Assembly: GCF_004564275.1 (NCBI RefSeq)
Contig: NZ_SPDV01000027.1
Span: forward strand, 1 to 46,910
Direction: 5' to 3'
DNA length: 46,910 bases
Source of the DNA: Sphingomonas parva (ex Maeng et al. 2020)
GTDB lineage: Bacteria; Pseudomonadota; Alphaproteobacteria; Sphingomonadales; Sphingomonadaceae
Shown: positions 8,101 through 40,782 of the stretch, in pieces
How positions within the stretch are numbered: position 1 is the stretch's first letter
How the letters are laid out: each line of letters opens with the position of its first letter
Program-made: the position numbers and the translations under genes
The notes under the pieces: generated by a model
Databases searched by the model: none
What the model saw: the letters and a program-made list of their open reading frames with translations, nothing else
Told to the model about the DNA's origin: nothing

Positions 8101-8749
8101 AAGCGACTTTCGGGGATAAGCTTACTGTGGGTGCGGGCAGTGCAAGCCGGCCCCGCGGCGGAGGCGGCTTGTTGATCGACCTGCGCGTTGAACGTGCGCC
8201 GGCCGAAATGGGTGCGGAGCCTCTAGAGTGAGATGCCAGCGCGGTCGAGTCATCCGGCGGGGTGCGGGCGCAGGGGCCTGCGCGATCTCGCCGGCCGTCA
8301 TGGCGGCGATCACCCTTGTGCTCACCTCCGCCACATCGAGGGGGGAGGCGACCGCCGGCAGGTCGAAGGCGACCGGCGCCTCGTGTACCGGCGCAGCCAT
8401 CACCGCCGAGGACCACGAAGAGACCTGCCACAGTCCCCTTGCTCGCAAGCCGCTCGGAACATATGATGAACATCTTACTTCGACGAGGCTCCGAGAAGTT
8501 GTGATGGACTCCCCCTCGCGCGTCACTGGCTGGCCGAACAAGCATGGTCTCGTCGGTATGAGTTCCCCGCCCGATCTTTACTCGCTGGCCAGTAAGAGAA
8601 GGTTAGAGATTGCATTTCGCAGCCGGACTAAGCAGTCTGCCGCAAAGCTCGAGGGGAGGGGCGATTTCCGGACCAATGCCCGACGTTCGTTGAATCCTTA
8701 TCAGACAAGACCCGCACGTCTGCTAACGCAAATCTCGTATCGGACCGAT
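8101..8749. other. Junction region upstream of the defence island
   Basis: About 650 bp between the desaturase start and hamA. Up to about 8430 the base use is like the chromosomal genes; beyond it becomes AT-richer, which marks the likely left edge of the island. On the minus strand a frame at about 8400-8240 reads APVHEAPVAFDLPAVASP and LDVAEVSTRVIAAMTAGEIA, which has more protein-like character than its surroundings and may be a gene remnant. The hamA frame is open upstream to 8228, but that extension lacks protein character. No att site or tRNA gene was seen here. Confidence 0.45.
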
Positions 8750-9541
8750 ATGATCCCGCCGGCGGCCGTCTACTGCGCGGGCTTTGAGCTGGCTATCTGG
8801 CGGTGCGAGGCACTCGCCGATCATCTTATCGAGTGGATTGCGGACTACGCCCTCCACGAGGATGAGCTGCGTGTCCACCACGGGAACATGTACGTTCGCC
8901 TCAAAGAGGCGGCGGCAAGGATTTACTCGAGCGCGATTTATGCCCAGCGCGGCGAGATTGGCGAGATTGTGCTTCACGCGATCTGCCGTGAGTTTTTCGG
9001 CACGATACCGTTCGCACCTCGGGTGTTCTACCTGACATCGTCAAACGACGTCGTGAAGTCTTTCGACATGGTCCATGTCCGCTATCCGGAGAGCGGGCCA
9101 GAGCTGTGGCTTGGCGAGGCGAAGTTTTACCAAGATGGCGTGGATGGCGCGCGAGCCGCCGTGAAGTCACTCACGGATCATATCGAGCGAGGCTTCCTCC
9201 AGAACGAAAAGCTAATCCTCGGTCCACAAGTATCGAAAAGCGTTCCTGAATATCAGCGCATCCGTAATCTTCTGTCGGTGCAGACATCCCTCGACGAGCT
9301 ATTCAAAACCGCAATCTTCCCGATCGGCATCGCTAGCGAAAGCGTCGCTACTTCGTCGGCTGCGTCGATCTGCCAGGAGTATGCTTCGGCTCTCCATCTG
9401 GAGGTCGCTGAAATGTCCAAGGTGATAGCCGCCTCGGGATTGCCGCAGAAGGTGCGCATCGTGCTGATCCATCTTCCGCTCGGTTCTAAGCAGAAGCTCG
9501 CCGACGCCTTCGATGCTCGTCTTAAGGGGCTTAAGCCATGA
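8750..9541 (+). CDS. hamA: Hachiman defence protein HamA (nuclease)
   Basis: HamA (DUF1837 family) is the nuclease of the Hachiman antiphage system. The 263-aa product shows the family core: DHLIEWIADYALHEDELRVHH, YVRLKEAAARIYSSAIYAQRGEIGEIVLHAICREFF, then SNDVVKSFDMVH and LWLGEAKFYQ. The last two supply a PD-(D/E)XK-type site, Asp106, Glu123 and Lys125 by my count. The C-terminus (KLADAFDARLKGLKP) is also typical. Its stop overlaps the hamB start by 4 bp (ATGA), so the two are translationally coupled. The frame is open back to 8228, with ATGs at 8504 and 8558, but the added sequence does not look like protein. I chose 8750 because it gives the usual family length; no clear Shine-Dalgarno precedes any candidate. 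In the known system HamA is inert until HamB senses damaged or phage DNA. Confidence 0.88.
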   Translation: MIPPAAVYCAGFELAIWRCEALADHLIEWIADYALHEDELRVHHGNMYVRLKEAAARIYSSAIYAQRGEIGEIVLHAICREFFGTIPFAPRVFYLTSSNDVVKSFDMVHVRYPESGPELWLGEAKFYQDGVDGARAAVKSLTDHIERGFLQNEKLILGPQVSKSVPEYQRIRNLLSVQTSLDELFKTAIFPIGIASESVATSSAASICQEYASALHLEVAEMSKVIAASGLPQKVRIVLIHLPLGSKQKLADAFDARLKGLKP

Positions 9542-11661
9542 CGCTCGTGGGCATCGACTGGCAGGAGTTGAAGGACACGCCCGGCACCGAGCTACTGCCC
9601 AGGGTTTTCGCGATCATGCGGGATGCGGCCGTCGCCGTTCACGCTGCCGAGCCAGACGATCCCGCGCTTCTTCAAGTCATTCCGCGACTTGCCGACCTGA
9701 TCCCATCGCGGAGGGAGCTGACGCCTCTTCGTGAGCCGTTCAGTGCCCTGGCCCGTGCCGTAGGCCTCTGGAACTACATCGATCGAGAAGCGGCGGACGA
9801 CGTGGATCGGCTAATAGCCGAAGCGGTCACCGCGCCTGAGCTCGGCGGCATTACCTTTCACCGCGAGCAAATCGTAGCTCTAAACAAGCTGCTCTCCGGC
9901 GAGAATCTAATCCTCAGCGCACCGACGAGCTTCGGCAAGAGCCTCCTGATTGACGCTCTCTTGGCAACAGGCAAGTATGGGCGGGTCGCGATCGTGCTGC
10001 CGACGATCGCCCTGCTTGACGAGTTCCGGCGCCGTCTGCGCCGTCGCTTCTCCAGCCGTTTCGAGATCCTGATGCACCCGACAGACGTCGCGGCGGGTCG
10101 CAATGTCATCTTCCTCGGCACACAAGAGCGACTCATTGGACGAGAGGATCTCGGTGATCTCGATCTCACGGTCGTCGACGAATTCTACAAGCTAGATCCC
10201 CGTCGACGAGATGAGCGCCACGTAACGCTGAACGCAGCGGTCTATCGCTTACTTAGGCGTTCACGGCAGTTCTTCTTCCTGGGTCCGAACATCGACAACG
10301 TCCAAATGAACGTTGAGGGCCGATGGAGCTTTCAGTTTCTGAAGACCCGCTTCTCCACCGTCGCGGTCGACACGTTCGACCTCCGTCAAGCCGCCGACAA
10401 GGAGGCTCGGCTTTTGGACGAGTTGGCAGAGGAGCGGAACTGGCCCGCATTGGTTTTCGTGTCATCGCCCGATCGAGCTAATAGGCTGGCCGAAAGCGCG
10501 TCCGAGCAGATGGCTGTGTCGGAGAACACAACGGAATTCGCGGAGTGGCTGCGGGAGAACGTTGGGAGTAGGTGGCCGCTAGCGAAGGCTGTGGAGTACG
10601 GCTTCGGCGTACATCACGCCAGGGTGCCGAGGGCAATCGCGTCGCACATGGTCCGGATGTTCAATCGTTCTGAGCTGCCGGTATTGTTCTGCACCTCTAC
10701 GCTTATCGAAGGCGTTAATACCGCTGCAAGGAGCGTTCTCATCTTCGATAAGAAGATTAGCCGCCAGAACTACGACTTCTTCACCTTCGCAAACATCAGA
10801 GGACGTGCTGGCCGGCTAGGTCAGCACCATGTTGGTCAGGTCTATCTATTTAACGAACCTCCGACGGCTGAGGAGACGGAGGTGTCGCCGACGCTCTTTG
10901 GAGATGACGAGAGCGCGTCAGACGATTACGTCGTACATCTAGAAGACGAGGACACGACCACTGCTATCGATGATCGCGTCACAGCGCTCCGCCAGTTACT
11001 GGACCTTACGAAGGCAGAACTGCGTCTTGCATCGGCGGTGGGGCTCGACACTGCACTGGCCCTCAAGCAACATGTCGACGCGTCTTTACGAGGACGCAGA
11101 GCTTTGGTCTGGTCTGGGTTGCCGGACTTCAATACCACGCTGGCGACGCTTGAAGTCATCTGCAAAGTTAAGAACGCTCGGGAGTTTGGTGCATTCTCAG
11201 CGAAGCAGCTAGCGTTCCTGATTGGAAGCCTCCGCTCGCATAAGTCTTTGAAGGCCTTCCTAATCGAGCGCGATCAGAATCTCACGAGCGATATCGCGAC
11301 TTACGACAACGTGTTCAAGTTTCTGAGAGCGTGCGAATACGGTCTTCCGCAATTGTTTGCACTCGTCGAAATATTTGTCCGCAAGCGCTTTGTGATCGCC
11401 GACTACAGCTACTTCGTGCGCGAGATGAGTCGGTGGTTTCGTAACGAGGCCCTTCGGAACCTGGACGAGGAAGGGGTGCCGATACAGGTTTCGGAGCGCT
11501 TCGTTCAGCCCGGTGACGATAGGAACTCGTTGGCGCGCAGGCTGGCCTCCGTCGCGTTGTCGAACGACGAGAGGCTCACCCCCTTTGAGCGTGAATGGCT
11601 TCTTGCAGCTTTGGACATTGACCGCGACGGGGGCGTGCTCGCGCCAAACGGAATTGCATAG
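9538..11661 (+). CDS. hamB: Hachiman defence helicase HamB
   Basis: A 707-aa superfamily 2 helicase, the sensor partner of HamA. Motifs in order: FHREQIVALNKLLSG (Q-like), Walker A APTSFGKS (about 127-134), VLPTIALLDEFRRRL (Ia), FLGTQERL, Walker B VVDEFYKLD (DEFY, about 214-217), HHARVPRAIASHMV, FCTSTLIEGVN (motif V, about 383-393) and IRGRAGRLGQ (motif VI, about 420-429). The C-terminal 230 residues form a helical domain with no catalytic motif visible. Published work on Hachiman shows HamB loads on DNA ends or ssDNA and releases HamA nuclease activity; this is family knowledge. Codon use is clearly less GC-biased than in the flanking chromosome, in keeping with horizontal transfer. Confidence 0.9.
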   Translation: MTLVGIDWQELKDTPGTELLPRVFAIMRDAAVAVHAAEPDDPALLQVIPRLADLIPSRRELTPLREPFSALARAVGLWNYIDREAADDVDRLIAEAVTAPELGGITFHREQIVALNKLLSGENLILSAPTSFGKSLLIDALLATGKYGRVAIVLPTIALLDEFRRRLRRRFSSRFEILMHPTDVAAGRNVIFLGTQERLIGREDLGDLDLTVVDEFYKLDPRRRDERHVTLNAAVYRLLRRSRQFFFLGPNIDNVQMNVEGRWSFQFLKTRFSTVAVDTFDLRQAADKEARLLDELAEERNWPALVFVSSPDRANRLAESASEQMAVSENTTEFAEWLRENVGSRWPLAKAVEYGFGVHHARVPRAIASHMVRMFNRSELPVLFCTSTLIEGVNTAARSVLIFDKKISRQNYDFFTFANIRGRAGRLGQHHVGQVYLFNEPPTAEETEVSPTLFGDDESASDDYVVHLEDEDTTTAIDDRVTALRQLLDLTKAELRLASAVGLDTALALKQHVDASLRGRRALVWSGLPDFNTTLATLEVICKVKNAREFGAFSAKQLAFLIGSLRSHKSLKAFLIERDQNLTSDIATYDNVFKFLRACEYGLPQLFALVEIFVRKRFVIADYSYFVREMSRWFRNEALRNLDEEGVPIQVSERFVQPGDDRNSLARRLASVALSNDERLTPFEREWLLAALDIDRDGGVLAPNGIA

Positions 11662-11854
11662 TTGGACATCATTGCGGTGAACTTCTCCACCCTTGTCGCT
11701 TCGTTCCTCTCTCCCAGCAAAAGGGGGACTTGGCACCATCAACACGCAAGCGAGACTGGCGAGCCTCGGCAAAGGCATGGCCCTGCCGCGCTTGGCTGCG
11801 ACAGGTTTTCAGGAGGGCGCGGCAACGGCCGCCGCTAAGGCTGAAGGGGGAGGC

Positions 11855-13678
11855 ATGATCGAGCATCTTCGGGCCGGCAAAACGGCCAATTTCCACAGGC
11901 TGAAGAGGCGCCTCAGCCTTGCCGCGGTGAGCGGCCTATTTACGTCGATCAGGGCAGCCCATGCGGAACCCTCGAACAATTTTTTCGCGCACCGGCGCGT
12001 GCCGCATGGTCCGGCCGTTTGGTCGGCGATCTGCTTCGCCTATGAGCAAAGGCCAGCGTTCCTAGCGGACGAGGCGCGCGCTGACGAAAGGGTTTGGGGC
12101 TTCCTGCTGCTGGTCGAGCATCGCGGCCATGCCGCGATCTTCAAATCTCGCCTCAACCTGCCCAATGCTTTCGCGACCCGCTATCTCGGGCGGGTATCCG
12201 CCGAGAGGGTGGACGCGGCCATCGCCCGTCAGGACGCGATCTTCGAGAAGGTGCGGCTTCGGAACCTTTCCGTCTCCGGTTTTGCCATGCGGACGAAGAG
12301 TTATGAGGCAAACGATCTCAAAGCGGTCGTTGGCCCAGCCGGAGCGAGCCGCTATGCGCCGCTCGGTTACGCACTCCGTGCGGGCGAGGACCATTACAGG
12401 ACCACTCCCAGCACCGGACGCATCTCTTTGCGCTCGGAGCGAATCGGCCATCTTGAATTGGTCGATTATGCGGTCTCCGTAATCGATGATCTGCTCGGCG
12501 CGGGACCAGCCCGGAACGATTTCATTCGCACTTTCGCCCGTGCGGTGGACCTTGAGGAAGCTCTTGAGGCGGCTCGGCCGGCGGCCTTTGCCGTCGACAT
12601 TGCCGGCTTAGCCGGAGCCATTCACGACACACGGCTGATCCGGCTCGTTCGCGTTGAGGAAGGTAACTGTTACCAGCTTCCAAAGGTCGAGGTGGACGCC
12701 CTTCTCGATCAACTTGGCCAAGTGTTGGAAGTCGGGGAGGTAGCGGGAAGGCTCTGCTCGTTGTCGCTTCCAGGGACGCACCAGGATCCGGTCGGCGCGA
12801 TCGCGCTTAACAAATCCGATATCGCGCTGCGCAAGCTCGACCTTCCGCTAACTGCCGGCGTTTGGGTCGAGAAGACAGATTATCCGCTCGGGACCGACCC
12901 GAACCGGCTTCCGCTGCGCCGCTATATTGACAAGGAGAATGGCTATATCGTTCTCTTCAGCGACCCCGCTCTCGGCTATATAGCAGGAAATTTGTTTCGC
13001 GACGGCGCGATGGCCGAGGGCGGCGACGTGCTGCTGCGCTACCTCGTTACGAACGCGGACCTCGAGAATGTCACCGACGAAAAAGGGACGTTCGCGCAGG
13101 GCCAGACCGCGTTCGACGCGGATTCCACCTTTGGCGCGATCGTAGCCAGCGTCGCTGACGGAGACGAAATCCTAGTATGCGACGATCTTGGCGACGAATG
13201 GGCTGACTTCATCGGTCTCGACAATCGGGCCAGCCCGCCGCGCATCAGCTTCTATCACGGAAAGCACGGGCCCCTCTCCCTCGGCGCCAGCCCTTTCCAC
13301 GTGTCCGTCAGCCAAGCCCAAAAGAATCTCGAGCGCATGATGCTCCCGGCCGCGGCCATGGGTGGCAAGATCAACGGCTGGAGGAACAATTACATCAGCG
13401 GGAGCAGCGTTCACACGGCGATCCCAAGGGTTGTCCGAGGTGATCCGGACCTGCTCGCGGCGGCCTTCGAGCAGGCACGGGCGGCCCCCGACGCCATACG
13501 GCGCGCTATGATCGTCACTTCCTCGCTCAGCAAAGGCGCAGTGGAGCAGGCCCTCGCTGACATTCGATCTGGCGGTCGCCCCGATCCTCACTTCATTCAG
13601 CTTTATCAGCTGCTGATGAGCTTCTTCTCGGCATGCACCGATATGAACGCGTTCGGGTATATCGTGTGCCGGCCATGA
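11855..13678 (+). CDS. Unrecognised defence-island protein with nuclease-like motif
   Basis: I do not recognise this 607-aa protein. No signal peptide or strong membrane segment is apparent. One stretch stands out: EILVCDDLGDEWADFIGLD (about 438-456), then RISFYHGKHG (about 462-471). Acidic residues, ADFI, a short loop, then a beta strand ending in YHxK resembles the PD-(D/E)XK arrangement, with His where Glu usually sits. I recall similar D-x-ADFI...YHxK stretches in other defence-linked proteins, but cannot name the family. The rest includes FYEQ-like aromatic and charged patches and ends SFFSACTDMNAFGYIVCRP. The ATG at 11855 is preceded by AGGGGGAGGC, the best ribosome-binding site in the region; the frame is open to 11693. 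It follows hamB by 193 bp on the same strand, and precedes the double-nuclease gene, so a defence role is inferred from context. Confidence 0.7.
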   Translation: MIEHLRAGKTANFHRLKRRLSLAAVSGLFTSIRAAHAEPSNNFFAHRRVPHGPAVWSAICFAYEQRPAFLADEARADERVWGFLLLVEHRGHAAIFKSRLNLPNAFATRYLGRVSAERVDAAIARQDAIFEKVRLRNLSVSGFAMRTKSYEANDLKAVVGPAGASRYAPLGYALRAGEDHYRTTPSTGRISLRSERIGHLELVDYAVSVIDDLLGAGPARNDFIRTFARAVDLEEALEAARPAAFAVDIAGLAGAIHDTRLIRLVRVEEGNCYQLPKVEVDALLDQLGQVLEVGEVAGRLCSLSLPGTHQDPVGAIALNKSDIALRKLDLPLTAGVWVEKTDYPLGTDPNRLPLRRYIDKENGYIVLFSDPALGYIAGNLFRDGAMAEGGDVLLRYLVTNADLENVTDEKGTFAQGQTAFDADSTFGAIVASVADGDEILVCDDLGDEWADFIGLDNRASPPRISFYHGKHGPLSLGASPFHVSVSQAQKNLERMMLPAAAMGGKINGWRNNYISGSSVHTAIPRVVRGDPDLLAAAFEQARAAPDAIRRAMIVTSSLSKGAVEQALADIRSGGRPDPHFIQLYQLLMSFFSACTDMNAFGYIVCRP

Positions 13679-13754
13679 TCACGAAGGGAAGCCGTGGATC
13701 AATGTCGCCGACACCGAAGCAGACCAAGGCATTGGCAATCGGCAATTCTCGGTT

Positions 13755-13803
13755 GCTGTAAGCTGTAAGCTGTAAGCTGTAAGCTGTAAGCTGAAAGCTG
13801 ACA
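13755..13803. repeat. GCTGTAA heptamer tandem repeat
   Basis: Five perfect copies of GCTGTAA in a row, then the degenerate units GCTGAAA and GCTGACA. It lies in the 352-bp gap between the unknown island gene and the double-nuclease gene. The remainder of that gap shows no gene; it has a visibly lower GC stretch (about 13930-14020) that could hold the promoter of the next gene. Repeat number may vary between strains. Confidence 0.85.
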
Positions 13804-14030
13804 GTCCGCTTCTGGCGAGGTTCGGTCGAGGCTGAGCATAACGAAATGTGTGTTCCGGGCGCCCCGCGCGCACATTGCAGCTTGGAGGGATCATTAGGCA
13901 ATGCTCCGAAGAGGGTCGTGCGCAACCAACTTGGTGCCCAAAGCCATGTTCCATGGAACGTTTCTTGGTTTGTACGTACATTATTGGTAACATCAACGCT
14001 GGCAATATAGTTCCCTGAAAGGATGCGCAC

Positions 14031-15092
14031 GTGAGTCGAACGAGTGATCTTCACATCGACTTGATGAATCTCGAACAGGCCTGGATCGAGTTCCTGGCCG
14101 ACCTGTTCGAGCGGGACGGCTGGGAAGTCCTTGCCAAGGATGTCAGCACCTCCTCGCGCGGAGAGCCTGACGTCTCGATTATGCAGCGCGGGTCGCACGT
14201 GTTGGTCGAGCTCAAGCTGATCCGCTCCGGCCTGGCTTCGCGCGCGCTTATCCACAACGCTGCTTCCAACCTGCTCGCGATGATGAAAGCCCGCCATGCC
14301 GAGGGAGGCATTCTGATTATTCCACAGCGGCTTACGAGAGAGGCCCGGCGCGCCTTCGATGACGTGTCCGGCGATACGATTGAATTGTGGGATTTGAACC
14401 GACTCATTGAGCACGTAACGCGCTTCCCAAACTTGAGCCGGCGGCTTGCCGACCTACTGCGTGCCCTCCAGATCGGCGCCGAAAACGCACCCAGCAACGC
14501 CACCACCGTTGCGATGCTCGACGACGCCGGCCAGGAGCTGCCACCGCCAGGTGAAGGCGCGCGGATCGCCAGCGCGCTCAAGGCGATAGAGCCGGGAAAC
14601 AAGGGTGGCGCGGCCGCGAGCTTCGAGAAATTGTGCGAGGAGGCGCTCACGCTCCTGTTTGGCACGGAGCTTCTTGGCTGGCGGCGTCAATCGGCGATCG
14701 AAAATGGCTATCACCGGGTCGATCTGATCGCGCGGCTGCAACCCGTGCGGAGCGCGTTCTGGACGACTTTGTCGGCCGATTTTCGCGCGCGCTATATTGT
14801 TTTCGAGTTCAAGAACTACACCGATCCAATTGGCCAGGACCAGATCTACTCAACCGAACGTTATCTCTACGCCACGGCGCTGCGGTCGGTGGCGATCGTC
14901 ATCGCGCGAAATGGCTATTCGGAGAACGCAAGCCGGACGGTCCGCGGGGCGCTTCGCGATCAGGGCAAGCTCATCCTGTGCCTCGACCTCGAAGAGTTTT
15001 GCAGCATGCTGCAGGCATTTGACACCGGCGACGAATATGAAAAGCCGCTTTTCGCGAAGCGCGACGACTTGCTGATGTCGTTGGCACGATGA
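14031..15092 (+). CDS. Restriction-like protein with two PD-(D/E)XK signatures
   Basis: A 353-aa protein with two separate PD-(D/E)XK-type nuclease signatures. The first is GEPDVSIMQRGSHVLVELKL (Asp47, Glu60, Lys62) after an N-terminal helix LEQAWIEFLADLFERDGWEV, like the Mrr/restriction-endonuclease fold. The second is GYHRVDLIARL (Asp231), then YIVFEFKNYTDPIGQDQIY (Glu259, Lys261). Between them is a helical linker rich in Ala, with LRALQIGAENAPSNATTVAMLDD. Two catalytic-looking cores on one chain suggest either a pseudo-dimeric nuclease or one catalytic and one sensing domain. The start is a GTG with AAAGGA nine bases upstream; an ATG at 14064 is a possible alternative. It is the last gene of the first cassette; only a few bases separate its stop from the rtcR-like remnant. 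Role in defence is inferred from motifs and neighbours. Confidence 0.75.
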   Translation: MSRTSDLHIDLMNLEQAWIEFLADLFERDGWEVLAKDVSTSSRGEPDVSIMQRGSHVLVELKLIRSGLASRALIHNAASNLLAMMKARHAEGGILIIPQRLTREARRAFDDVSGDTIELWDLNRLIEHVTRFPNLSRRLADLLRALQIGAENAPSNATTVAMLDDAGQELPPPGEGARIASALKAIEPGNKGGAAASFEKLCEEALTLLFGTELLGWRRQSAIENGYHRVDLIARLQPVRSAFWTTLSADFRARYIVFEFKNYTDPIGQDQIYSTERYLYATALRSVAIVIARNGYSENASRTVRGALRDQGKLILCLDLEEFCSMLQAFDTGDEYEKPLFAKRDDLLMSLAR

Positions 15093-15500
15093 GCTTTGGC
15101 TCCTGCTGGCGCCCGTCGCGGACCCCGAAGCGCCCGCCAGGCCTCGGAGAGCGAGCGGCTGCGTTTGCAGACCCGCACCACGTCGAGCTGGACGCGGTCG
15201 AAGGGGTCGATCGCCGCCAGCGCCTCGGCGCCGACCAGCGGTTCCAGCCCCTCCAGCGCTTCTGGGGCCGGGGTGCGGGCGCCGCCCCCGCCCCAGAACC
15301 GCTGCAGCCGCGCCTTCTCCGCCTCCACCGTGGCGACGTCGATCCGGCCGGCCCGGGCGAAGGTCGCGATGCGGATGAGGGTGGCTGCGAGATCGCTGAA
15401 GTTCCGGATCAATAGGGTTAGCCGCCAAATCGACGAAAGCGCGGCAGGCCTAGTTGTTGAACCGGGTCCCCGTGCGCTCGATGAAGAGGTGGCTTGGAAT
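15093..15500 (-). pseudogene. Decayed 3' fragment of a second rtcR
   Basis: Minus-strand translation gives LAATLIRIATFARAGRIDV, then [17 protein letters not shown] and [18 protein letters not shown], closely matching the C-terminal part of the intact RtcR encoded at 18928-20541. Homology extends upstream at DNA level to about 15500 but with an in-frame TAG (at about 15450, where RtcR has Glu of KEARRAF), small deletions and many substitutions. Downstream, similarity stops near the nuclease gene's stop codon at 15092. No AAA+ Walker or GAFTGA region is left. It is diverged from the intact gene, not an identical duplicate, so it probably came with incoming DNA or is an old duplication. Confidence 0.85.
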
Positions 15501-15543
15501 TTACTAAGCTCGTCTCCTATGGTCGGCGACCAAGGGGCGAGAA

Positions 15544-18500
15544 ATGGCAGATTCTATCGGTCCAAATAGTGACAGCGACCAGAGCTCGCTCTGGACTGAG
15601 GAGCGCACGGGGCGACTGACGGAGCTCTGGGCACAAGGGCTGACTGCAGCCGAGATCGCGCGAGAGATCGGTATCCGTCGAAACGCGGTGATCGGGAAAG
15701 CGCATACACTCGGATTGGAATCGCGCGCCCTAGCTGACGCACTTACCCCCGATCCCAAAGATCCGATTATCTCCCTCGGCCGGTCCTCAGTTTCTTCGCT
15801 CGACATCCTCGATTGGTTCTGGCCAGACTCCGAGACCCCGTATCTTGCAAGTCCATTCGACGCGATCTTCGAAGTCGCAGCCGACATTATCAGTGCGCAC
15901 GATTCGGAGCAGGCCGTCGTAATTCAGGCCGCAGAATTCATCGATGCTGCGCTAGCCTTTGCGCTCGAAGGATCGAGTCCGTCTTCGATAGGCAGCTTGC
16001 TCAAAAGCTACGAGATTATGCCGAGCCCTCGGGCGATGGACGCAGTGCGGGCATATCGTGCGGCTCCGCCCGGACTGCCGGCGGTGCGTCCGATCATCGG
16101 ATGGGAGATCGTCGACATTCTGCGCGCTGCTGCGAGTATCCGTCGGCGCGTGGATCGCAAACCCAGTGCTATCAACCTGTCCCATCTGTTCGTGGCGCTG
16201 TTGTTGACCCCGTCGGGGCAGGCGGGCCTACGATCGCTTGATCAACTTACACGTGGAATTGATCCGTTCCGCCAGCTTGCGCTGGCAATCGCGGACGAAC
16301 TCGCAAGAACGAAAAAATCTCCCTACCGCGAACCCTGGGAGTCGGTCCGAGGGGGGTTGGAGGCGATACGAGAGTTCGCGCCTTCCCGTTTTGATCGCGC
16401 AGGCTATTCGAGCGACCGCGTCAGGGCGGGCCAAGATGTCTTCGGCGCATCTGTCGATGCACGCGCGCTCGCTGACATCATCCTGCTGCGCGCCGCGGAG
16501 CCGCCGCTTGCAATCGGTGTGTTTGGACCCTGGGGTTCGGGCAAGAGCACCCTCCTCGCCGAACTCAAGACTGAGATCCGGGAGCAGGCGCTAGCGGAGC
16601 GTGCCGCTCTCGCCAACGGCGTCAGCGCGTCCGATGAGATCGCGCGAGTATCGGGCGTGCTGCAGCTCGAGTTCAACGCCTGGACCTTCGCTGACAGCGC
16701 CAACCTTTGGGCATCGATGACAGCCGAACTGTTCGATCAGATCGCTGCCGGTGGGATCGAAAACGCTGAGACCCACGGCGGCCGGCATGGTGCGGAGCTC
16801 GTCAACATAGTCGCAAACCGGACCGCCAAGGAACTCGAGCTGCTACGCGCCGCGACCGGCTATACTGCGGTGCAAGAGGAAAAGATCGCGGAGAGCCGGC
16901 GGCTGATCGCGGTCGCGGAATCGAGCGCCAAGCTCTCGCTAATCGGCGCAGCGGCCGACACCGCCCAGGCGTTGCTCGGCCCCGAGCGCAAACCTGACGA
17001 TAAGGACAAGTTCGCGGCTAAGGCGAACTCGCCCGAGGAAACGGCGCTTGAGATTGTGCGCAGTGGTGTCCTGGCGGGCGAGAAGCCTGAGGAGCGCATC
17101 AGGCGCTATGCCGAAGCGAGCACGTCGATCGCCCGCTGGTTCTATGCGTCTCGTGACTATTTGCGCGGCGGCACGAGTTGGATGCGAAGGACACTCATCT
17201 CCGCCAGCGTGGTCGTGACGATCGCTACGGTCTATGTGCTCGTATTCGGATCCCCGGTCGCGCTCCCAAGCCATGGGCAACTCGCGCTCATCCTAATCGC
17301 GGTCGTTGGCTGGGTAGCGTCGATCCTGTCTTTCGGCTTGCCTGCGCTTCGGGTGGTCAGTCTGTTCCACGCCAAGATGCTCGAGCGACGCCGCCAAGCA
17401 CGCGAGGACTTGGCCAAGGCGAAGGAGGCGCTCAGCGCCGGAGAGCGGGAATTGGCGGCGTCCAAATCGCAGGCCGACAAGAGCAAGGCCTTCGTCGATC
17501 ATTATAGGAGGGTCGCCGAAGGCGGCTCGCCAGCGCCCGCGCTACTACTCGACTTCCTTCTGCGCGAATCAACGGATGTTGCCACCGTCCGTGCGAACCT
17601 CGGCTTGCTCAGCACCGTCCGCAAATGCTTCGAGCAGCTGAATTCGGTGATCAGCGCGATGCGGGAAAAGCGCGAGGCTGACCTGATCGAGCGGATCATC
17701 ATCTATATCGACGACCTTGATCGCTGCCCGGAAAAACAGGTCGTGGAGGTACTTGAGGCGGTCCACCTGCTGCTGGCGTTCCCCTGCTTCGTGGTGGTCG
17801 TGGCGGTTGACCCGCAGTGGTTGAAGCTGTCGCTAGAAAAGCAATATGATCAACTCTCCCGGCTATCCGGCCCGAGCGCGGCCGATTATCTCGAAAAAAT
17901 CTTCCAAATCCCCTTCTGGATCCGGCCGATTCGTGGCCGGAGTGATGATCCAGCGGCGACCGGCCGCTACCGCCGCTATGTGCGCGACCTGCTGGGCCAA
18001 GCCGCCATCGACGCGCAGGATTTCAATCCGCTTGCTGAGAACGAAAATCCCCACGTCCGGACAATATCAGGCTTTCGTCCGCTGCCGCCGGAAGCTCCCG
18101 AGGTTGAGCCGGCCGTCGCGCGCAGTCGTCTGCGACTAGACGCGATCGAGATTGTCTTCTTCGAGGCGATGGCGCCCCTTGCAGCCAAGTCGCCGCGCGC
18201 GGTCAAGCGGATGGCCAATCTCTATCGCTTAATACGGGCAGGCCTTACCGATGATCGGCGGCGAACTTTCCTGGATGCAAAGCGGCGGGACAGGGCTCCA
18301 ACATACGCGACCGTCCAGTTCGCGCTCGCATGTGAAGTCGGGCTGCCCCAGGCGACCGTTGAAGCGATCGCGGCGGCGCTCCCCCTAGCGAAGCCGGACG
18401 ACTGGGGCGACATACTCACGGCGTGCTCGACCGAACATATCCTCAGCCCGGACTCGTCGCTTGCTCCGCTACTAGCTGCGCTCCGGGACGGCAATGCCGT

Positions 18501-18624
18501 CGAGCCGTTTACGGAGGCGCTCACCGCTTTCTTCATGATCGGCTCAGGCATACCGCCGATTGAGCAGCTGGTCACATCTTTCGAGCTTGTTGGCCGTTAC
18601 TCCTTCCGTTCGTGCTTCGGTTAA
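15544..18624 (+). CDS. GcrA-like DNA-binding domain fused to KAP P-loop NTPase
   Basis: A 1026-aa protein of unusual build. Residues 16-58 (LWTEERTGRLTELWAQGL, then EIGIRRNAVIGKAHTLGL) match the GcrA helix-turn-helix, including the W-T-x-E-R start and RNAVIGK-x-H-x-LGL end. Residues about 90-260 are helical, with NLSHLFVALLLTPSG slightly like a Clp-N repeat. A KAP-type NTPase follows: Walker A GVFGPWGSGKSTLL (325-338), two membrane segments inserted in the domain (about 549-572 and 580-602), a charged coiled-coil-like stretch (about 615-660), and Walker B IIIYIDDLDRC (718-728) followed by VVEVLEAVHLLL and AVDPQWL, as in KAP proteins. KAP NTPases include the phage T7 exclusion protein PifA. 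GcrA normally works with sigma70 at CcrM-methylated GANTC sites. It sits between the rtcR remnant and intact rtcR, alone. A GATTC site overlaps codons 3-4. Function is inferred as defence. Confidence 0.85.
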   Translation: MADSIGPNSDSDQSSLWTEERTGRLTELWAQGLTAAEIAREIGIRRNAVIGKAHTLGLESRALADALTPDPKDPIISLGRSSVSSLDILDWFWPDSETPYLASPFDAIFEVAADIISAHDSEQAVVIQAAEFIDAALAFALEGSSPSSIGSLLKSYEIMPSPRAMDAVRAYRAAPPGLPAVRPIIGWEIVDILRAAASIRRRVDRKPSAINLSHLFVALLLTPSGQAGLRSLDQLTRGIDPFRQLALAIADELARTKKSPYREPWESVRGGLEAIREFAPSRFDRAGYSSDRVRAGQDVFGASVDARALADIILLRAAEPPLAIGVFGPWGSGKSTLLAELKTEIREQALAERAALANGVSASDEIARVSGVLQLEFNAWTFADSANLWASMTAELFDQIAAGGIENAETHGGRHGAELVNIVANRTAKELELLRAATGYTAVQEEKIAESRRLIAVAESSAKLSLIGAAADTAQALLGPERKPDDKDKFAAKANSPEETALEIVRSGVLAGEKPEERIRRYAEASTSIARWFYASRDYLRGGTSWMRRTLISASVVVTIATVYVLVFGSPVALPSHGQLALILIAVVGWVASILSFGLPALRVVSLFHAKMLERRRQAREDLAKAKEALSAGERELAASKSQADKSKAFVDHYRRVAEGGSPAPALLLDFLLRESTDVATVRANLGLLSTVRKCFEQLNSVISAMREKREADLIERIIIYIDDLDRCPEKQVVEVLEAVHLLLAFPCFVVVVAVDPQWLKLSLEKQYDQLSRLSGPSAADYLEKIFQIPFWIRPIRGRSDDPAATGRYRRYVRDLLGQAAIDAQDFNPLAENENPHVRTISGFRPLPPEAPEVEPAVARSRLRLDAIEIVFFEAMAPLAAKSPRAVKRMANLYRLIRAGLTDDRRRTFLDAKRRDRAPTYATVQFALACEVGLPQATVEAIAAALPLAKPDDWGDILTACSTEHILSPDSSLAPLLAALRDGNAVEPFTEALTAFFMIGSGIPPIEQLVTSFELVGRYSFRSCFG

Positions 18625-18927: not shown

Positions 18928-20541
18928 TCACTCCCGCACCCGCCGCCACTCCAGCCCGTACCGCTGCAGATATTTCCGCAGCCGATCCGCGTCGTTCGCG
19001 CTCGCCCGCCGCGTGCGCGAGGCGCTGAACAAAGCCCGACCCGCCTCCGAGAGCGAGCGGCTGCGCCGGCACACCCGCACCACCTCGGCGAGCTGGACAC
19101 GGTCGAACGGGTCGATCGCCGCCAGCGCCTCGGCGCCGAGCAGCGCCTCGAGCGCGTCCGCCTCCGCACCCGCCGCACCCGCATGGCGACCTTCGCCTCC
19201 GCCCCAGAACCGCTGCAGCCGCGCCTTCTCGGCCTCGACGGTGGCGACGTCGATCCGGCCGGCGGGGGCGAAGGTCGCCATGCGGGTGACGCTGGCGGCG
19301 AGGTCGCGGAAATTGCCGGTCCAGGCGGCGTCGGGGGCGGTCGCGAAATCGAGGAAGGCGCGGCGCGCCTCCTTGTTGAAGCCGACGCGGGCGCCCTCGC
19401 GCTCGGCGAAGCGGTCGAGCTCGTAGTCGAGGTTGGGGGCGATGTCCTCGCGCCGGTCGCGCAGCGCCGGCAGCTCGAAGGTCCAGAGGTTGAGGCGGGC
19501 GAACAGATCGTCGCGGAACGCGCCCGCGGCGACGGCGCCGCCGAGTTCCTTGTTGGTGCCGGCGATCAGCTGGAAGTCGGAACCCACCTCCTTGTCGGCG
19601 CCGACGGGGAGGAAGCGCTTCTCCTCGATGGCGCGCAGGATCATCGCCTGCTCGTCGAGGCCGAGCTCGCCGATCTCGTCGAGGAACAGGACGCCCTTGT
19701 CGGCGGTGCGCAGCAGGCCGGGCCGGTCGGCGGCGGCGCCGGTGAACGCGCCCTTCCGGTGCCCGAACAGCGCCGACATCGCGCCGTCGCCCCTCAGCGT
19801 CGCGCAATTGACCTCGACGAACGGGCCGGAGACCTGGTGCTTCGCCCGCTTCAATTCGTAGATCTTGCGGGCGAGCTGCGACTTGCCGGCGCCGGTCGGC
19901 CCCATCAGCAGCATCGGCGCGCGTGAGCGGACCGCGACCTGCTCGATCTCGTCGATCATCCGGTTGAACGCGGGGTTGCGCGTCTCGATGCCCGACTTGA
20001 GGAACGAGCTGCCCTCCGCCGCCGCCGCGGCGAAGCGGGTGGCGATGCTGTCGTAGCGCGACAGATCGAGGTCGATCGCGCTCCATTTGCCGGCGGCGGC
20101 GCCCTCGGCCGGGCGCGACGGATTGGTCTGCAGCAGCCGGCCGGGCAGGTAGCGCGCCTCGGTGAGCAGGAACAGGCAGATCTGGGCGACGTGGGTGCCG
20201 GTGGTGATGTGGATCAGATAATCCTCGGCCTCCGGATCGAAGCGATAGGCGCGGGCGAAATCGAGCAACTTCCCATAGACCTCCTCGAAGTCCCAGGGAT
20301 CGGCGAAGTCGAGCCGGCGGAGGTTGACCTCGGTCTCGGGCGAGACTCCGGCGATGTCGGCGCGGACATGTTTCGCCAGCCCCTCGTGCTGGCCGCCGTG
20401 GATCAGCTCGAGCCGGTCGACGCGCAGATCCTCGTGCATGCACAGGCCGACGGTCGGCCGCCACTTGTTCCAGCGCTCCGGGCCCTGCCTGCTCGCGTCG
20501 AGGGTGGAGCCGAGGAAGCCGATCACGACATTGGGTCTCAT
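18928..20541 (-). CDS. rtcR: RtcR, sigma54-dependent activator of RNA repair
   Basis: A 537-aa RtcR. The N-terminal ~180 residues ([50 protein letters not shown]) are the CARF-like sensory domain. The AAA+ domain follows with Walker A GPTGAGKS (about 212-219), [11 protein letters not shown] (the sigma54-contacting GAFTGA loop, about 263-268), Walker [15 protein letters not shown] and the arginine-finger region [10 protein letters not shown]. The C-terminus is a helical DNA-binding region ending [12 protein letters not shown]. It activates rtcBA transcription when RNA damage products appear; in other bacteria tRNA fragments are implicated. The ATG at 20541 gives the standard length; the frame is open far upstream but through repeat DNA. 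Divergent from rtcB, with a sigma54 promoter in between. Its 3' end borders the defence genes. Confidence 0.95.
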
Positions 20542-20689
20542 CCTTATACGATGAGATAGATTGCTAGACGTGTCGATAGGGATTCGGCGGGCGCTGCGCG
20601 GGTGACGCTGGAGGGCTGTTGCAGCGGGGCGGAGAATTTCCCACGTGAGAACAAGGCGTTGCGACTTTTCTGCAGCACGCGCAGGTAAA

Positions 20690-20706
20690 CTGGCACGGCC
20701 TCTGCA
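20690..20706 (+). promoter_or_regulatory. Sigma54 (-24/-12) promoter of rtcBA
   Basis: TGGCACG, four bases, CTGCA fits the sigma54 consensus (YTGGCACG-R-N3-TTGCW) with one mismatch, and the GG and GC dinucleotides have the required spacing. It points towards rtcB, about 650 bp away, and lies about 150 bp in front of the divergent rtcR start, where RtcR would bind upstream. Transcription should start near 20717. Confidence 0.85.
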
Positions 20707-20746
20707 CTGTATTTTCCGTCGGACGGATCGTGTCGCCGCCCGACAA

Positions 20747-21250
20747 AGCGGCGGGGCGGCTGGAATGGGCCGGCCGCCCCAAAGGATTGTGGTGATGCGA
20801 GGCGTGGCTCTGGCGATCCCCTGCTCGTCATTCCGGCGGAAGCCGGAATCCCGTGGAGGAGGGGTCGTGAGGGTCGTGGAGCGCTCCATGAGCGCTTCTG
20901 CCTTTCCGGCCCGAGATTCCGGCCTTCGCCGGAATGACGGGTGCGGGGAGAGGCGCTGGCGGAGCGGGAGCGGCGGGGCGGCTGGAATGGGCCAGCCGCC
21001 CCAAAGGATTGCAGTGATGCCGGTGAGCGCGCGGGTGCGGCCTGGATTCCAACACCAAGGTCCGCTGGTTCGACTCCAGCCACCGGTGCCACCGCGCTTG
21101 CCTGCTCGTCATTCCGGCGGAAGCCGGAATCTCGTGGCGAAGGAGTCCCGAGGGTCGTGGAGCGCTCCATTGGCGCTTCTGTCCTTCCGACCCGAGATCC
21201 CGGCGTTCGCCGGAATGACGGGTGAGGGGAGAGGCGCTGACGGGGCGGGA
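20747..21250. repeat. Tandemly duplicated leader unit with palindromic hairpins
   Basis: Two direct copies of one unit, about 20747-20968 and 20969-21250. Each starts with GGGGCGGCTGGAATGGGCC and its closing GCCGCCCC (a hairpin), continues AAAGGATTG-x-x-GTGATG, and contains the pair TCATTCCGGCGGAAGCCGG and CGCCGGAATGACGGGTG around GGGTCGTGGAGCGCTCCAT. The second copy is longer by roughly 60-70 bp because it carries the tRNA-like element. A further small palindrome (ATACCGGCCTTCGCCGGTAT) is at 21293-21313, just before rtcB. Confidence 0.8.
21019..21091 (+). ncRNA. tRNA-like RNA element in the rtcBA leader
   Basis: A 73-nt element with a tRNA outline. GCCGGTG (21019-21025) pairs with CACCGGT (21081-21087) over seven base pairs, one of them G-U; G and CCA follow. 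A perfect T arm is present: GCTGG, loop TTCGACT, CCAGC (21064-21080). The anticodon region is not normal: GGCCT pairs with AGGTC, extended by GG/CC across a bulged A, around a 9-base loop ATTCCAACA. The D arm is minimal. It is therefore a tRNA mimic or pseudo-tRNA, not a working tRNA. It is on the same strand as, and inside, the predicted sigma54 transcript upstream of rtcB. Y-RNA-like tRNA mimics accompany rtcBA in some other bacteria. Here a role as RtcB/RtcA substrate, CCA-enzyme target or RtcR ligand is inference. Confidence 0.75.
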
Positions 21251-21352
21251 TGGCAAGCGCCCTCCATCGGCGCCTGGACGAGCCCTCCACGAGATACCGG
21301 CCTTCGCCGGTATGACGAATTTGGATAATAGGGATCATTGAAGGAGGGCCCG

Positions 21353-22576
21353 ATGGCCGAGAGTTTCGAGATGATGGCGGTCGAGGGCGGCGCGCCGGTG
21401 AAGATGTGGACCAGGGGGGTCGCGGTCGATCCGAAGGCGCGCGAGCAGCTCTCGCGCGCGGCGAAGATGCCGTTCATCTTCAGGCACGTCGCGGCGATGC
21501 CGGACGTCCATGTCGGGATCGGCGCGACCGTCGGATCGGTGATCCCGACCCGCGGCGCGGTGATCCCGGCGGCGGTCGGGGTCGACATCGGCTGCGGCAT
21601 GATGGCGGCGAGGACCTCGCTCCACGCCTCGGACCTTCCGGACAATCTGGAAGGGGTGCGCCGGGCGATCGAGCAGGCGGTGCCGCACGGGCGCGACGTC
21701 GGGCGCGGCAAGCGCGACAAGGGCAGCTGGGGCGACCCGCCGCCGGAGATCGTCTCCGCCTGGGCGACCCTGGCCGAGAGGTTCAAGCGGATCACCGACA
21801 AGTACCCGAAGCTCCAGAACACGAACAACCTCGTGCATCTGGGGACGCTGGGGACCGGCAACCACTTCATCGAGCTCTGCCTCGACGAGGCGGACCAGGT
21901 GTGGGTGATGCTCCATTCGGGCTCGCGCGGCGTCGGCAACGCGATCGGCACCTTCTTCATCGCCCTGGCGAAGGAGGACATGCGCAAGTGGTTCGTCAAT
22001 CTGCCGGACGAGGACCTCGCCTATTTCACCGAGGGGACCGACCATTTCGACGATTATGTCGAGGCGGTCGGCTGGGCGCAGGACTTCGCGGCGCTGAACC
22101 GGCGGATGATGATGACCAACACGATCCGCGCGATCCGGTCGGTCATCGCCAAGCCGTTCGAGGCGGAGCTGGAGGCGATCAACTGCCACCACAATTACGT
22201 CCGCAAGGAGCGCCATTTCGGCGAGGACGTGCTGGTCACCCGCAAGGGGGCGGTGCGCGCGGCCGAGGGGGTGATGGGGATCATCCCGGGCTCGATGGGG
22301 GCGAAGAGCTTCATCGTCCGCGGCCGCGGCAACAGGGAGTCGTTCGACAGCTGTAGCCACGGCGCCGGACGATTGATGTCGCGGACCGAGGCGAAGAAGC
22401 GCTTCACCCTCGACGATCACGTCCTCGCCACCGAGGGCGTCGAATGCCGCAAGGACGCGGGCGTGATCGACGAGACCCCGGCGGCCTACAAGCCGATCGA
22501 GGCGGTGATGGCGGCCCAGGCCGATCTGGTCGAGGTGGTCCACACCCTGAAGCAGGTGGTGTGCGTGAAGGGGTGA
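21353..22576 (+). CDS. rtcB: RNA-splicing ligase RtcB
   Basis: A 407-aa RtcB, the GTP- and Mn2+-dependent ligase that joins 2',3'-cyclic-phosphate (via 3'-phosphate) and 5'-OH RNA ends. Visible signatures: AAMPDVHVGIGATVGSVIPT, VGVDIGCGMMAART (metal-binding Asp and Cys), GTLGTGNHFIEL, MLHSGSRGVGN, INCHHNYVRKERHFGE, IIPGSMGAKSFIVRG, and SCSHGAGRLMSR, whose His is the guanylylated nucleophile. The length equals that of the E. coli enzyme. The start is the ATG at 21353, five bases after AAGGAGGG; the frame also opens with a TTG 15 bp upstream, which would overlap the ribosome-binding site. It is followed by rtcA on the same strand after a 351-bp palindrome-rich gap and should be expressed from the sigma54 promoter. 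Confidence 0.97.
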   Translation: MAESFEMMAVEGGAPVKMWTRGVAVDPKAREQLSRAAKMPFIFRHVAAMPDVHVGIGATVGSVIPTRGAVIPAAVGVDIGCGMMAARTSLHASDLPDNLEGVRRAIEQAVPHGRDVGRGKRDKGSWGDPPPEIVSAWATLAERFKRITDKYPKLQNTNNLVHLGTLGTGNHFIELCLDEADQVWVMLHSGSRGVGNAIGTFFIALAKEDMRKWFVNLPDEDLAYFTEGTDHFDDYVEAVGWAQDFAALNRRMMMTNTIRAIRSVIAKPFEAELEAINCHHNYVRKERHFGEDVLVTRKGAVRAAEGVMGIIPGSMGAKSFIVRGRGNRESFDSCSHGAGRLMSRTEAKKRFTLDDHVLATEGVECRKDAGVIDETPAAYKPIEAVMAAQADLVEVVHTLKQVVCVKG

Positions 22577-22927
22577 GGGGACCAGGAGCAGCATGCCGGG
22601 GGCATGCTGCGGCCGGGTCACCGCCCTGGCGCGCAGCGGCGGGGGCGGAGCGCCTCGAGCGCGTTCGATCACATGGTGAGGGGAAGCGAACGCTCCGCCT
22701 CGATGGCGGAGCGGGCGCTCTTCGAGCCCCAGTCACCCTCACCAACCTCCGCTAGGCGGCAGAGCCGCCAAGCTCCGGTATCCTCTCCCCTCAAGGGAGA
22801 GGGCGGCGATCGCCGGAGGCGGACGGAGAGTTGTAGTGGCAGCGCGCCAGCGCGAGCTCTCCGTCGCCGGCCCACCCCTCTTATCCCCTCCCGCAAGCGG
22901 GAGGGGAGGGAATCAGAAAGTGAGACA
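22577..22927. repeat. Palindrome-rich gap between rtcB and rtcA
   Basis: Contains GCATGCCGGGGGCATGC, CTCTCCCCTCAAGGGAGAG and CCCCTCCCGCAAGCGGGAGG as separate hairpin-forming palindromes, plus loosely complementary longer arms. No ORF of note. The hairpins could stop transcription or protect the rtcB transcript 3' end, which would lower rtcA expression relative to rtcB. Confidence 0.65.

Positions 22928-39630: not shown

Positions 39631-40782
<1,152 letters not shown>

What the first reader, a model, noticed from the sequence alone, without database searches (positions are those of the whole stretch)
15544..18624. GcrA-like DNA-binding domain fused to a membrane KAP NTPase
The first 58 residues match the GcrA cell-cycle regulator helix-turn-helix (W-T-x-E-R ... 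RNAVIGK-x-H-x-LGL); the rest is a KAP P-loop NTPase with Walker A at 325-338, an inserted pair of membrane helices and Walker B IDDLD at about 722-726. GcrA reads CcrM-methylated GANTC sites with sigma70, and the same window encodes ccrM. KAP proteins include the T7 exclusion protein PifA. A defence protein that checks host methylation marks or mimics a core host regulator is a plausible new idea: it could detect loss of GANTC methylation, or sit on a host promoter signal that phages also use. I do not know a described case.
Basis: partly seen in the sequence, partly recalled or inferred. Interest (0 to 1): 0.85.

Follow-up and report, generated by a model that had tools for sequence, protein, structure and literature searches.

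The report
GcrA DNA-reader on membrane KAP ATPase
A few sphingomonad bacteria carry a probable anti-virus membrane ATPase whose front end is the DNA-reading head of GcrA, a core cell-cycle regulator that reads methylated DNA; this could be a new way for an immune protein to check DNA methylation marks, but nothing has been tested in the laboratory.

Summary
ORF 15544-18624 (1026 aa) has a true GcrA DNA-binding domain (residues 17-64, 51.6 bits, cut-off 26.9) joined to a KAP NTPase (109.9 bits, cut-off 20), with Walker A at 328-335, a membrane hairpin at about 549-605 and Walker B at 721-726. GcrA's sigma-binding domain is absent. I found five such proteins: the window's and four in Sphingomonas. 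All five genomes also have a CcrM-like methylase and a separate gcrA. The HTH is as conserved as the ATPase core (57% against 55-58%); the Clp-N-like part is not (27%). Three of five loci lie near recognised defence genes. Related KAP proteins hold EVE, TIR, kinase or WD40 domains at the N-terminus. Best reading: a single-gene, membrane-anchored conflict ATPase whose GcrA head tethers it to DNA, probably GANTC-m6A, with the variable Clp-N-like domain as sensor. Methylation reading, defence and membrane killing are inferred. ccrM in the window is a core gene 21 kb away, not linked evidence. New variant of a known kind.

The parts
15544..18624 (+). GcrA-DBD / Clp-N-like / KAP NTPase fusion, 1026 aa
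15592..15735 (+). GcrA DNA-binding HTH (residues 17-64); no sigma-interacting domain follows
   Evidence: PF07750 E 1.8e-13, profile positions 3-51/155; PDB 7ye1, 5yiu; groups with Sphingomonadales GcrA in the best tree
15844..16383 (+). Clp/Hsp100 N-domain-like all-helical domain (residues about 101-280), the fast-evolving N-terminal part
   Evidence: AlphaFold2 model of residues 1-300, pLDDT 76.8; Foldseek PDB: 18 of the top 25 titles name a Clp protein or Hsp104, best E 0.013, none below 0.001; 27% mean pairwise identity
16525..16548 (+). Walker A, residues 328-335
   Evidence: WGSGKST invariant in 5 of 5
17188..17358 (+). membrane hairpin, residues about 549-605
   Evidence: Kyte-Doolittle segments between Walker A and B in 5 of 5 homologues, but only one stretch in L004; helices in a low-confidence full-length model
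17359..17517 (+). long helix (probable coiled coil), residues about 606-658
   Evidence: helix 577-658 in the full-length model, pLDDT 69-78 over 601-650
17704..17721 (+). Walker B YIDDLD, residues 721-726
   Evidence: invariant in 5 of 5
8228..9541 (+). HamA (Hachiman), same low-GC block
   Evidence: PF08878
9538..11661 (+). HamB helicase (Hachiman)
11693..13678 (+). PDC-S71 candidate defence protein
   Evidence: PADLOC E 5e-100
14031..15092 (+). Mrr-type endonuclease, weakly PDC-M36A-like
   Evidence: PF04471 47.5 bits; PADLOC E 2.7e-11
39649..40782 (+). ccrM, core gene outside the block; context only
   Evidence: NF050803 E 4.9e-189, 627.5 bits, below that model's cut-off of 830, which the Caulobacter control also misses

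Best explanation
A stand-alone, horizontally acquired conflict (most likely anti-phage) ATPase of the KAP family. A membrane hairpin holds it at the inner membrane with its other domains in the cytoplasm (inferred from KAP topology, recalled). The N-terminal domain is the DNA-binding head of a sphingomonad GcrA without the sigma-binding half. It tethers the protein to DNA, probably with GcrA's preference for CcrM-methylated GANTC (inferred from homology). The variable Clp-N-like domain is the likeliest detector of an intruder protein or peptide (inferred). Sensing lets the ATPase assemble and act at the membrane, as thought for other KAP exclusion proteins (recalled, inferred). Shown here: the architecture, the likeness of the HTH to GcrA, conservation of HTH and ATPase, variability of the Clp-N-like domain, and co-occurrence with a CcrM-like methylase, GcrA and, in three of five loci, defence genes. 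Not shown: DNA binding, methylation reading, defence, membrane damage.
For: GcrA DBD and KAP over curated cut-offs; the fused head is over the PF07750 cut-off in all 5 genomes. W17, T18, R21, R46, N47, V49 invariant in 5 of 5. HTH identity 57% equals the KAP core (58%, 55%), against 27% in residues 101-290 and 26% in the insert. The N-terminal model resembles Clp/Hsp100 N domains (18 of the top 25 Foldseek titles name a Clp or Hsp104). Block GC 60.7% against 70% on both flanks; Hachiman, PDC-S71 and Mrr beside it. PD-Lambda-4_A near L003, Avs2 near L004: with the window 3 of 5 loci. The same E <= 1e-20 scan around ccrM in the four other genomes found only RtcR-type regulators, 4 of 116 proteins. 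CcrM-like methylase in 5 of 5 genomes. Related KAPs carry EVE over cut-off in 2, and below cut-off in 1, of the 19 N-termini scanned.
Against: Two of five loci (L005, L006) have no recognised defence gene within about 20 kb among the ORFs scanned. The Clp-N match has no Foldseek E below 0.001, and profile comparison with two Clp-N sequences failed (probability below 1). L004's HTH departs at several recognition-helix positions and the window has T where 31 of 31 GcrAs have R, so GANTC-m6A specificity may be altered. GANTC lies within 300 bp upstream of the gene in only 2 of 5 loci. The CcrM model also hits 9 of 14 control genomes at the loose threshold, so CcrM rests on score and length, not on its cut-off. 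The full-length model is poor (pLDDT 59.4, pTM 0.31).
Confidence: 0.42

Rival explanations
1. The HTH is an effector. On activation the KAP assembles and clustered GcrA heads occupy methylated GANTC promoters without recruiting sigma70, shutting off the GcrA regulon and arresting the cell (dominant-negative GcrA).
For: DBD kept, SID lost; in relatives the N-terminal slot can hold effector-type domains such as TIR (L018) and kinases (L037, L038); HTH strongly conserved.
Against: GcrA and CcrM are reported dispensable in Caulobacter (start of the abstract of PMC3885167 as printed), so this would be a mild effector; a membrane-tied protein is poorly placed to cover a genome (inference).
Confidence: 0.14
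2. Integrated decoy: the GcrA head is bait for phage proteins that attack or imitate host GcrA, and its disturbance triggers the ATPase, as integrated domains do in plant NLR receptors (recalled).
For: Head resembles sphingomonad GcrA, including the RPSPVK tail in L003 and L005; some phages encode GcrA-like HTHs (Phaeobacter phage E 1e-7, two Brevundimonas phages E 3e-5 and 5e-5).
Against: No example known to me of a phage protein that targets GcrA; I did not search for one beyond the listing. The conserved positions include the recognition helix, which DNA binding explains as well.
Confidence: 0.08
3. The HTH is a DNA tether or autoregulator with no methylation role; it is GcrA-like only because gcrA was an available source gene.
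For: Specificity untested; substitutions in L004 and the window; all five genomes have gcrA, so co-occurrence with CcrM is expected anyway.
Against: Recognition-helix residues R-N-x-V kept in 5 of 5 while the region behind diverges to 27%.
Confidence: 0.26
4. Not defence: a membrane-bound one-component regulator of cell cycle or stress.
For: A cell-cycle regulator's DBD; two of five loci lack recognised defence neighbours.
Against: Rare and patchy (2 of 199 family genomes), no shared neighbours except one CoA-transferase pair, in a low-GC block with defence genes in the window; no sigma-binding domain.
Confidence: 0.1

Closest known systems
GcrA (PF07750; Caulobacter GcrA, PDB 5yiu, 7ye1)
   Same: DBD of 45-50 residues with W-T-x-E/D-R and RNAVIGKxHxLGL; the fused heads group with Sphingomonadales GcrA in the best of four trees compared (p-AU 0.66), but excluding them from it is not rejected (0.19)
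   Different: No sigma-interacting domain; attached to a membrane ATPase of some 950 residues
KAP NTPases: PifA (F plasmid), QatA, PDC-S20
   Same: KAP P-loop core; PADLOC PifA E 1.1e-18, QatA E 3.5e-19
   Different: Best-scoring stretches lie within residues 679-799; none of the best stretches listed reaches the GcrA head
KAP relatives with other N-termini (EVE: L029, L036; TIR: L018; kinase: L037, L038; WD40: L017, L041)
   Same: KAP core homologous at 26-39% identity; a comparable helical region before Walker A in some
   Different: Another domain, or none recognised, where GcrA sits here
Modification-dependent sensors with EVE/PUA domains (for example EVE-HNH nuclease VcaM4I; start of the abstract of PMC7897488 seen)
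   Same: Idea of a modified-DNA reader fused to a defence module
   Different: HTH reader of GcrA type; no nuclease domain over cut-off in the Pfam scan

Membership tests
GcrA | DBD similar to the GcrA N-terminus | tested here: met
   51.6 bits, cut-off 26.9; PDB hits
GcrA | C-terminal sigma-interacting domain | tested here: not met
   Only profile positions 3-51 of 155 match; the genome's own gcrA fragment matches 91-152
GcrA | methylation-dependent GANTC binding | not testable with these tools
   needs EMSA
KAP NTPase | PF07693 core with Walker A and B | tested here: met
   109.9 bits, cut-off 20; motifs invariant in 5 of 5
KAP NTPase | transmembrane hairpin inserted between Walker A and B (feature recalled) | tested here: met
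   hydrophobic segments between the two motifs in 5 of 5; only one stretch detected in L004
Clp/Hsp100 N domain | fold of two repeated helical bundles (feature recalled) | tested here: inconclusive
   18 of the top 25 Foldseek titles name a Clp or Hsp104, best E 0.013; sequence profiles against two Clp-N sequences fail
Anti-phage defence system | protects against phage | not testable with these tools
   only context: 3 of 5 loci near recognised defence genes
PifA / QatABCD | whole-length match and partner genes | tested here: not met
   best stretches within residues 679-799; no other Qat protein listed for the ten window proteins scanned

The most novel reading that the evidence does not exclude
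A bacterial immune receptor that takes the DNA-reading head of a master cell-cycle regulator to follow the cell's CcrM methylation state: held on methylated GANTC in a healthy cell and released or re-clustered at the membrane when infection changes the methylated-DNA landscape. KAP ATPases would form a modular class with exchangeable modified-DNA readers (EVE, GcrA).
Probability: 0.25. Interest if true: 0.85.

Novelty: new variant of a known kind. Interest (0 to 1): 0.62.

Why it matters
If the head still reads GANTC-m6A, this links a central epigenetic mark of Alphaproteobacteria to innate immunity, and does so in one gene that can be cloned and tested. It would also suggest why some related KAP proteins carry EVE domains: the N-terminal slot may be a place for readers of DNA modification. 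If the head is a decoy or an effector, it would still be a rare case of a host master regulator's domain built into a conflict protein.

Tried and rejected
Generic HTH: rejected, since the best structures are GcrA itself and the only other hit listed has E 0.054. ccrM linkage: rejected, a gene of core composition 21 kb away. Recent copying from the host's own gcrA: not supported; nucleotide identity of a fused head to any of the 35 sequences compared (31 GcrAs, 4 other heads) is at most 0.73, and the host's own gcrA ranks 15th (L003), 4th (L004), 3rd (L005) and 14th (L006). Single or repeated fusion: undecided; monophyly of the five heads has p-AU 0.076 on 46 residues. A conserved operon partner: none found within about 8 kb; by blastp the loci share only the fusion and one CoA-transferase pair (L003, L006). 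A 1840-aa ORF near L006 matched PADLOC mad3 (E 2.4e-53), but from its translation I judge it an ABC-F ATPase with a spurious upstream frame; I did not count it. A weak CARF hit (E 1.2e-4) near L005 was not counted either, nor the RtcR hit in the window, since RtcR-type hits also occur around ccrM. Promoter GANTC autoregulation: no common pattern. Other large GcrA fusions: among the rows printed for 385 class genomes (243 with a match) only the window had a frame over 700 aa; the frames of 626 and 653 aa have the HTH at residue 467 and 486 and so look like ordinary GcrAs with an open upstream frame. In 31 genomes searched again (23 with two or more matches, 8 family genomes with two matches) the only other frame over 700 aa was G011's. 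Lower-scoring matches were not printed, so this is not exhaustive. Four plasmid hits were looked at: three ordinary short GcrA genes and one record without annotation there. VIA-align was not available. Wu et al. 2018 on the GcrA structure is not held, so DNA-contact residues could not be checked.

Full report
The feature is real. The ORF at 15544-18624 encodes 1026 residues. Residues 17-64 match the GcrA profile with 51.6 bits, nearly twice the curated cut-off, and the KAP NTPase profile matches with 109.9 bits. Searched against solved structures, residues 1-73 return C. crescentus GcrA (7ye1 and 5yiu, E 3.4e-11 and 7.7e-11) and one further hit at E 0.054. Walker A (328-335), Walker B (721-726) and a hydrophobic hairpin between them are present.

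Only the DNA-binding half of GcrA is there. Passages of a review (PMC7403470) put the DBD of GcrA at residues 1-45 and the sigma-interacting domain at 108-173; the fusion matches only profile positions 3-51 of 155. It should therefore bind DNA without recruiting sigma70 in GcrA's way. Passages of PMC3667746 report that GcrA orthologues of Brucella abortus and Sinorhizobium meliloti, like that of Caulobacter, bind fully methylated probes better than hemi- or unmethylated ones. Whether the fused head does so is unknown.

Distribution. The scan of one genome per species, which uses six short peptide patterns and may miss distant members, gave 39 loci that encode KAP relatives. In 4 of 39 the match includes the GcrA head (L003-L006, all titled Sphingomonas); in the other 35 it starts at query residue 186 or later. 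A motif scan of the first 400 residues in 36 of the 39 (L024, L026 and L035 dropped; L023 was read in a masked frame) found the head only in the same four. In the window's family 2 of 199 genomes carry the full-length protein: the own genome and G011, which I take to be the genome of L006 because the length, the first 220 residues printed and the contig position agree. In the order sample it is 1 of 396, the own genome. So five distinct proteins are known here. All five genomes have a CcrM-like methylase matching nearly the whole model (605-627 bits; all miss that model's cut-off of 830, as does the Caulobacter control) and a separate gcrA; in the own genome gcrA appears only as a fragment near a contig edge.

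Conservation separates the modules. Mean pairwise identity among the five is 57% in the HTH, 58% and 55% in the two KAP stretches, 27% in residues 101-290, 26% in the membrane insert and 32% at the C-terminus. In the head W17, T18, R21, L25, W29, G32, I38, R46, N47, V49, L56, L58 and R61 are invariant. Departures exist: L004 differs at several recognition-helix positions, and the window has T where 31 of 31 GcrAs from the sphingomonad genomes compared have R. Of four trees compared, the best has the heads grouped with Sphingomonadales GcrA (p-AU 0.66); excluding them from that group is not rejected (0.19), and a single origin of the five heads is weakly disfavoured (0.076). With 46 residues none of this is firm.

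The middle module. A five-sequence AlphaFold2 model of residues 1-300 has pLDDT 76.8 and pTM 0.68. Of its top 25 Foldseek hits in the PDB, 18 have titles that name a Clp protein or Hsp104; the other seven (malarial secretion and proteostasis proteins, SMAX1 complexes and one type VI secretion entry) I recall as Clp-type N domains too. Best E 0.013, none below 0.001. Profile comparison links this region to the equivalent region of four KAP relatives (L008, L021, L033, L034; probability 76%, E 2.4e-5), more weakly to six others (28%, 6e-4), and not to two Clp-N sequences of the own genome. I call it Clp-N-like by fold, not by proven homology. A passage of PMC7159879 notes ClpN repeats on another class of conflict proteins. 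As a fast-evolving fold that binds proteins and peptides in Clp ATPases (recalled), it is the better candidate for the sensor.

Context. The window gene ends a block, 8228-18624, of 60.7% GC between 70% flanks, with Hachiman HamA and HamB, PDC-S71 and an Mrr-type nuclease. PD-Lambda-4_A lies about 4 kb from L003's fusion and Avs2 about 9 kb from L004's. L005 and L006 have none that I accept among the ORFs scanned; a mad3 match near L006 is an ABC-F ATPase by my reading. Around ccrM in the same four genomes, up to 20 kb each side (9 kb on one side of G498, where the contig ends), 116 proteins gave only RtcR-type regulators, 4 of 116. The window was scanned separately, ten proteins, with a looser threshold, and has no control of its own. 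Apart from one CoA-transferase pair the five loci share no gene but the fusion within about 8 kb, which fits a mobile single-gene module.

Comparison with related KAP proteins. Of the 35 relatives without GcrA, the N-terminal parts of 19 were scanned against Pfam. Over cut-off: EVE in L029 and L036, TIR in L018, protein kinase in L037 and L038, WD40 in L017 and L041, peptidoglycan-binding in L030, Clp_N in L033 (by 0.1 bit). The other 10 had no domain over cut-off besides KAP; just below it were EVE in L014 and CHAT in L040. EVE domains bind modified bases (title and start of abstract of PMC7641849; 'kap' occurs 0 times in that paper's main text). A GcrA head in that position suggests, but does not prove, a slot for readers of modified DNA.

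Mechanism. I favour a membrane-anchored conflict ATPase tethered to DNA by the GcrA head, with the Clp-N-like domain as sensor and the ATPase and membrane part as output. The strict model in which methylation state itself is the signal is the most novel reading and I give it 0.25. The rivals are effector, decoy, plain tether and regulator.

Literature. Searches of the held open-licence library for GcrA with defence, fused and NTPase gave 0 papers, GcrA with antiphage gave 1, on S. meliloti prophages, seen in the listing only, GcrA with KAP gave 0, and KAP family with membrane and abortive infection gave 0. A passage of PMC10907252 mentions KAP NTPases among diversified putative antigen sensors. 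The main text of the conflict-system survey PMC7159879 holds 'gcra' 0 times and 'kap' twice; the KAP passages were not shown. Most subscription papers are not held, nor is the paper whose DOI I recalled for the original KAP family description, so absence here is limited.

Noticed in passing
L029, L036, L014 (N-terminus); L020 by similarity to L014: EVE domains (modified-base readers) at the N-terminus of KAP NTPases related to the window's; L014 is below the Pfam cut-off. The main text of the EVE survey PMC7641849 holds 'kap' 0 times.
   Followed up: partly
L037, L038: Zinc ribbon plus protein kinase domain before KAP in two Leptospiraceae MAGs.
   Followed up: no
window 18928-23947: rtcR regulator beside rtcB-like and rtcA RNA-repair genes at the right edge of the low-GC block.
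   Followed up: no
window 11693-13678: 661-aa protein matching candidate defence family PDC-S71 (E 5e-100), with no Pfam match at E 0.01.
   Followed up: no
window 14031-15415: Mrr-type nuclease weakly similar to PDC-M36A, overlapping by 4 bases a 108-aa ORF without Pfam or PADLOC match.
   Followed up: no
search_dna_similar hits H31-H41 (phage records): Lactobacillus phages carry a weak GcrA-like HTH match (42-44% identity, E 3e-3 to 9e-3), annotated variously as hypothetical protein, DNA repair exonuclease or GcrA; the HTH type may occur outside Alphaproteobacteria.
   Followed up: no
L003 15392-19042 and L137 9550-14088: PD-Lambda-4_A and Avs2 homologues near two of the other fusion genes.
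   Followed up: partly
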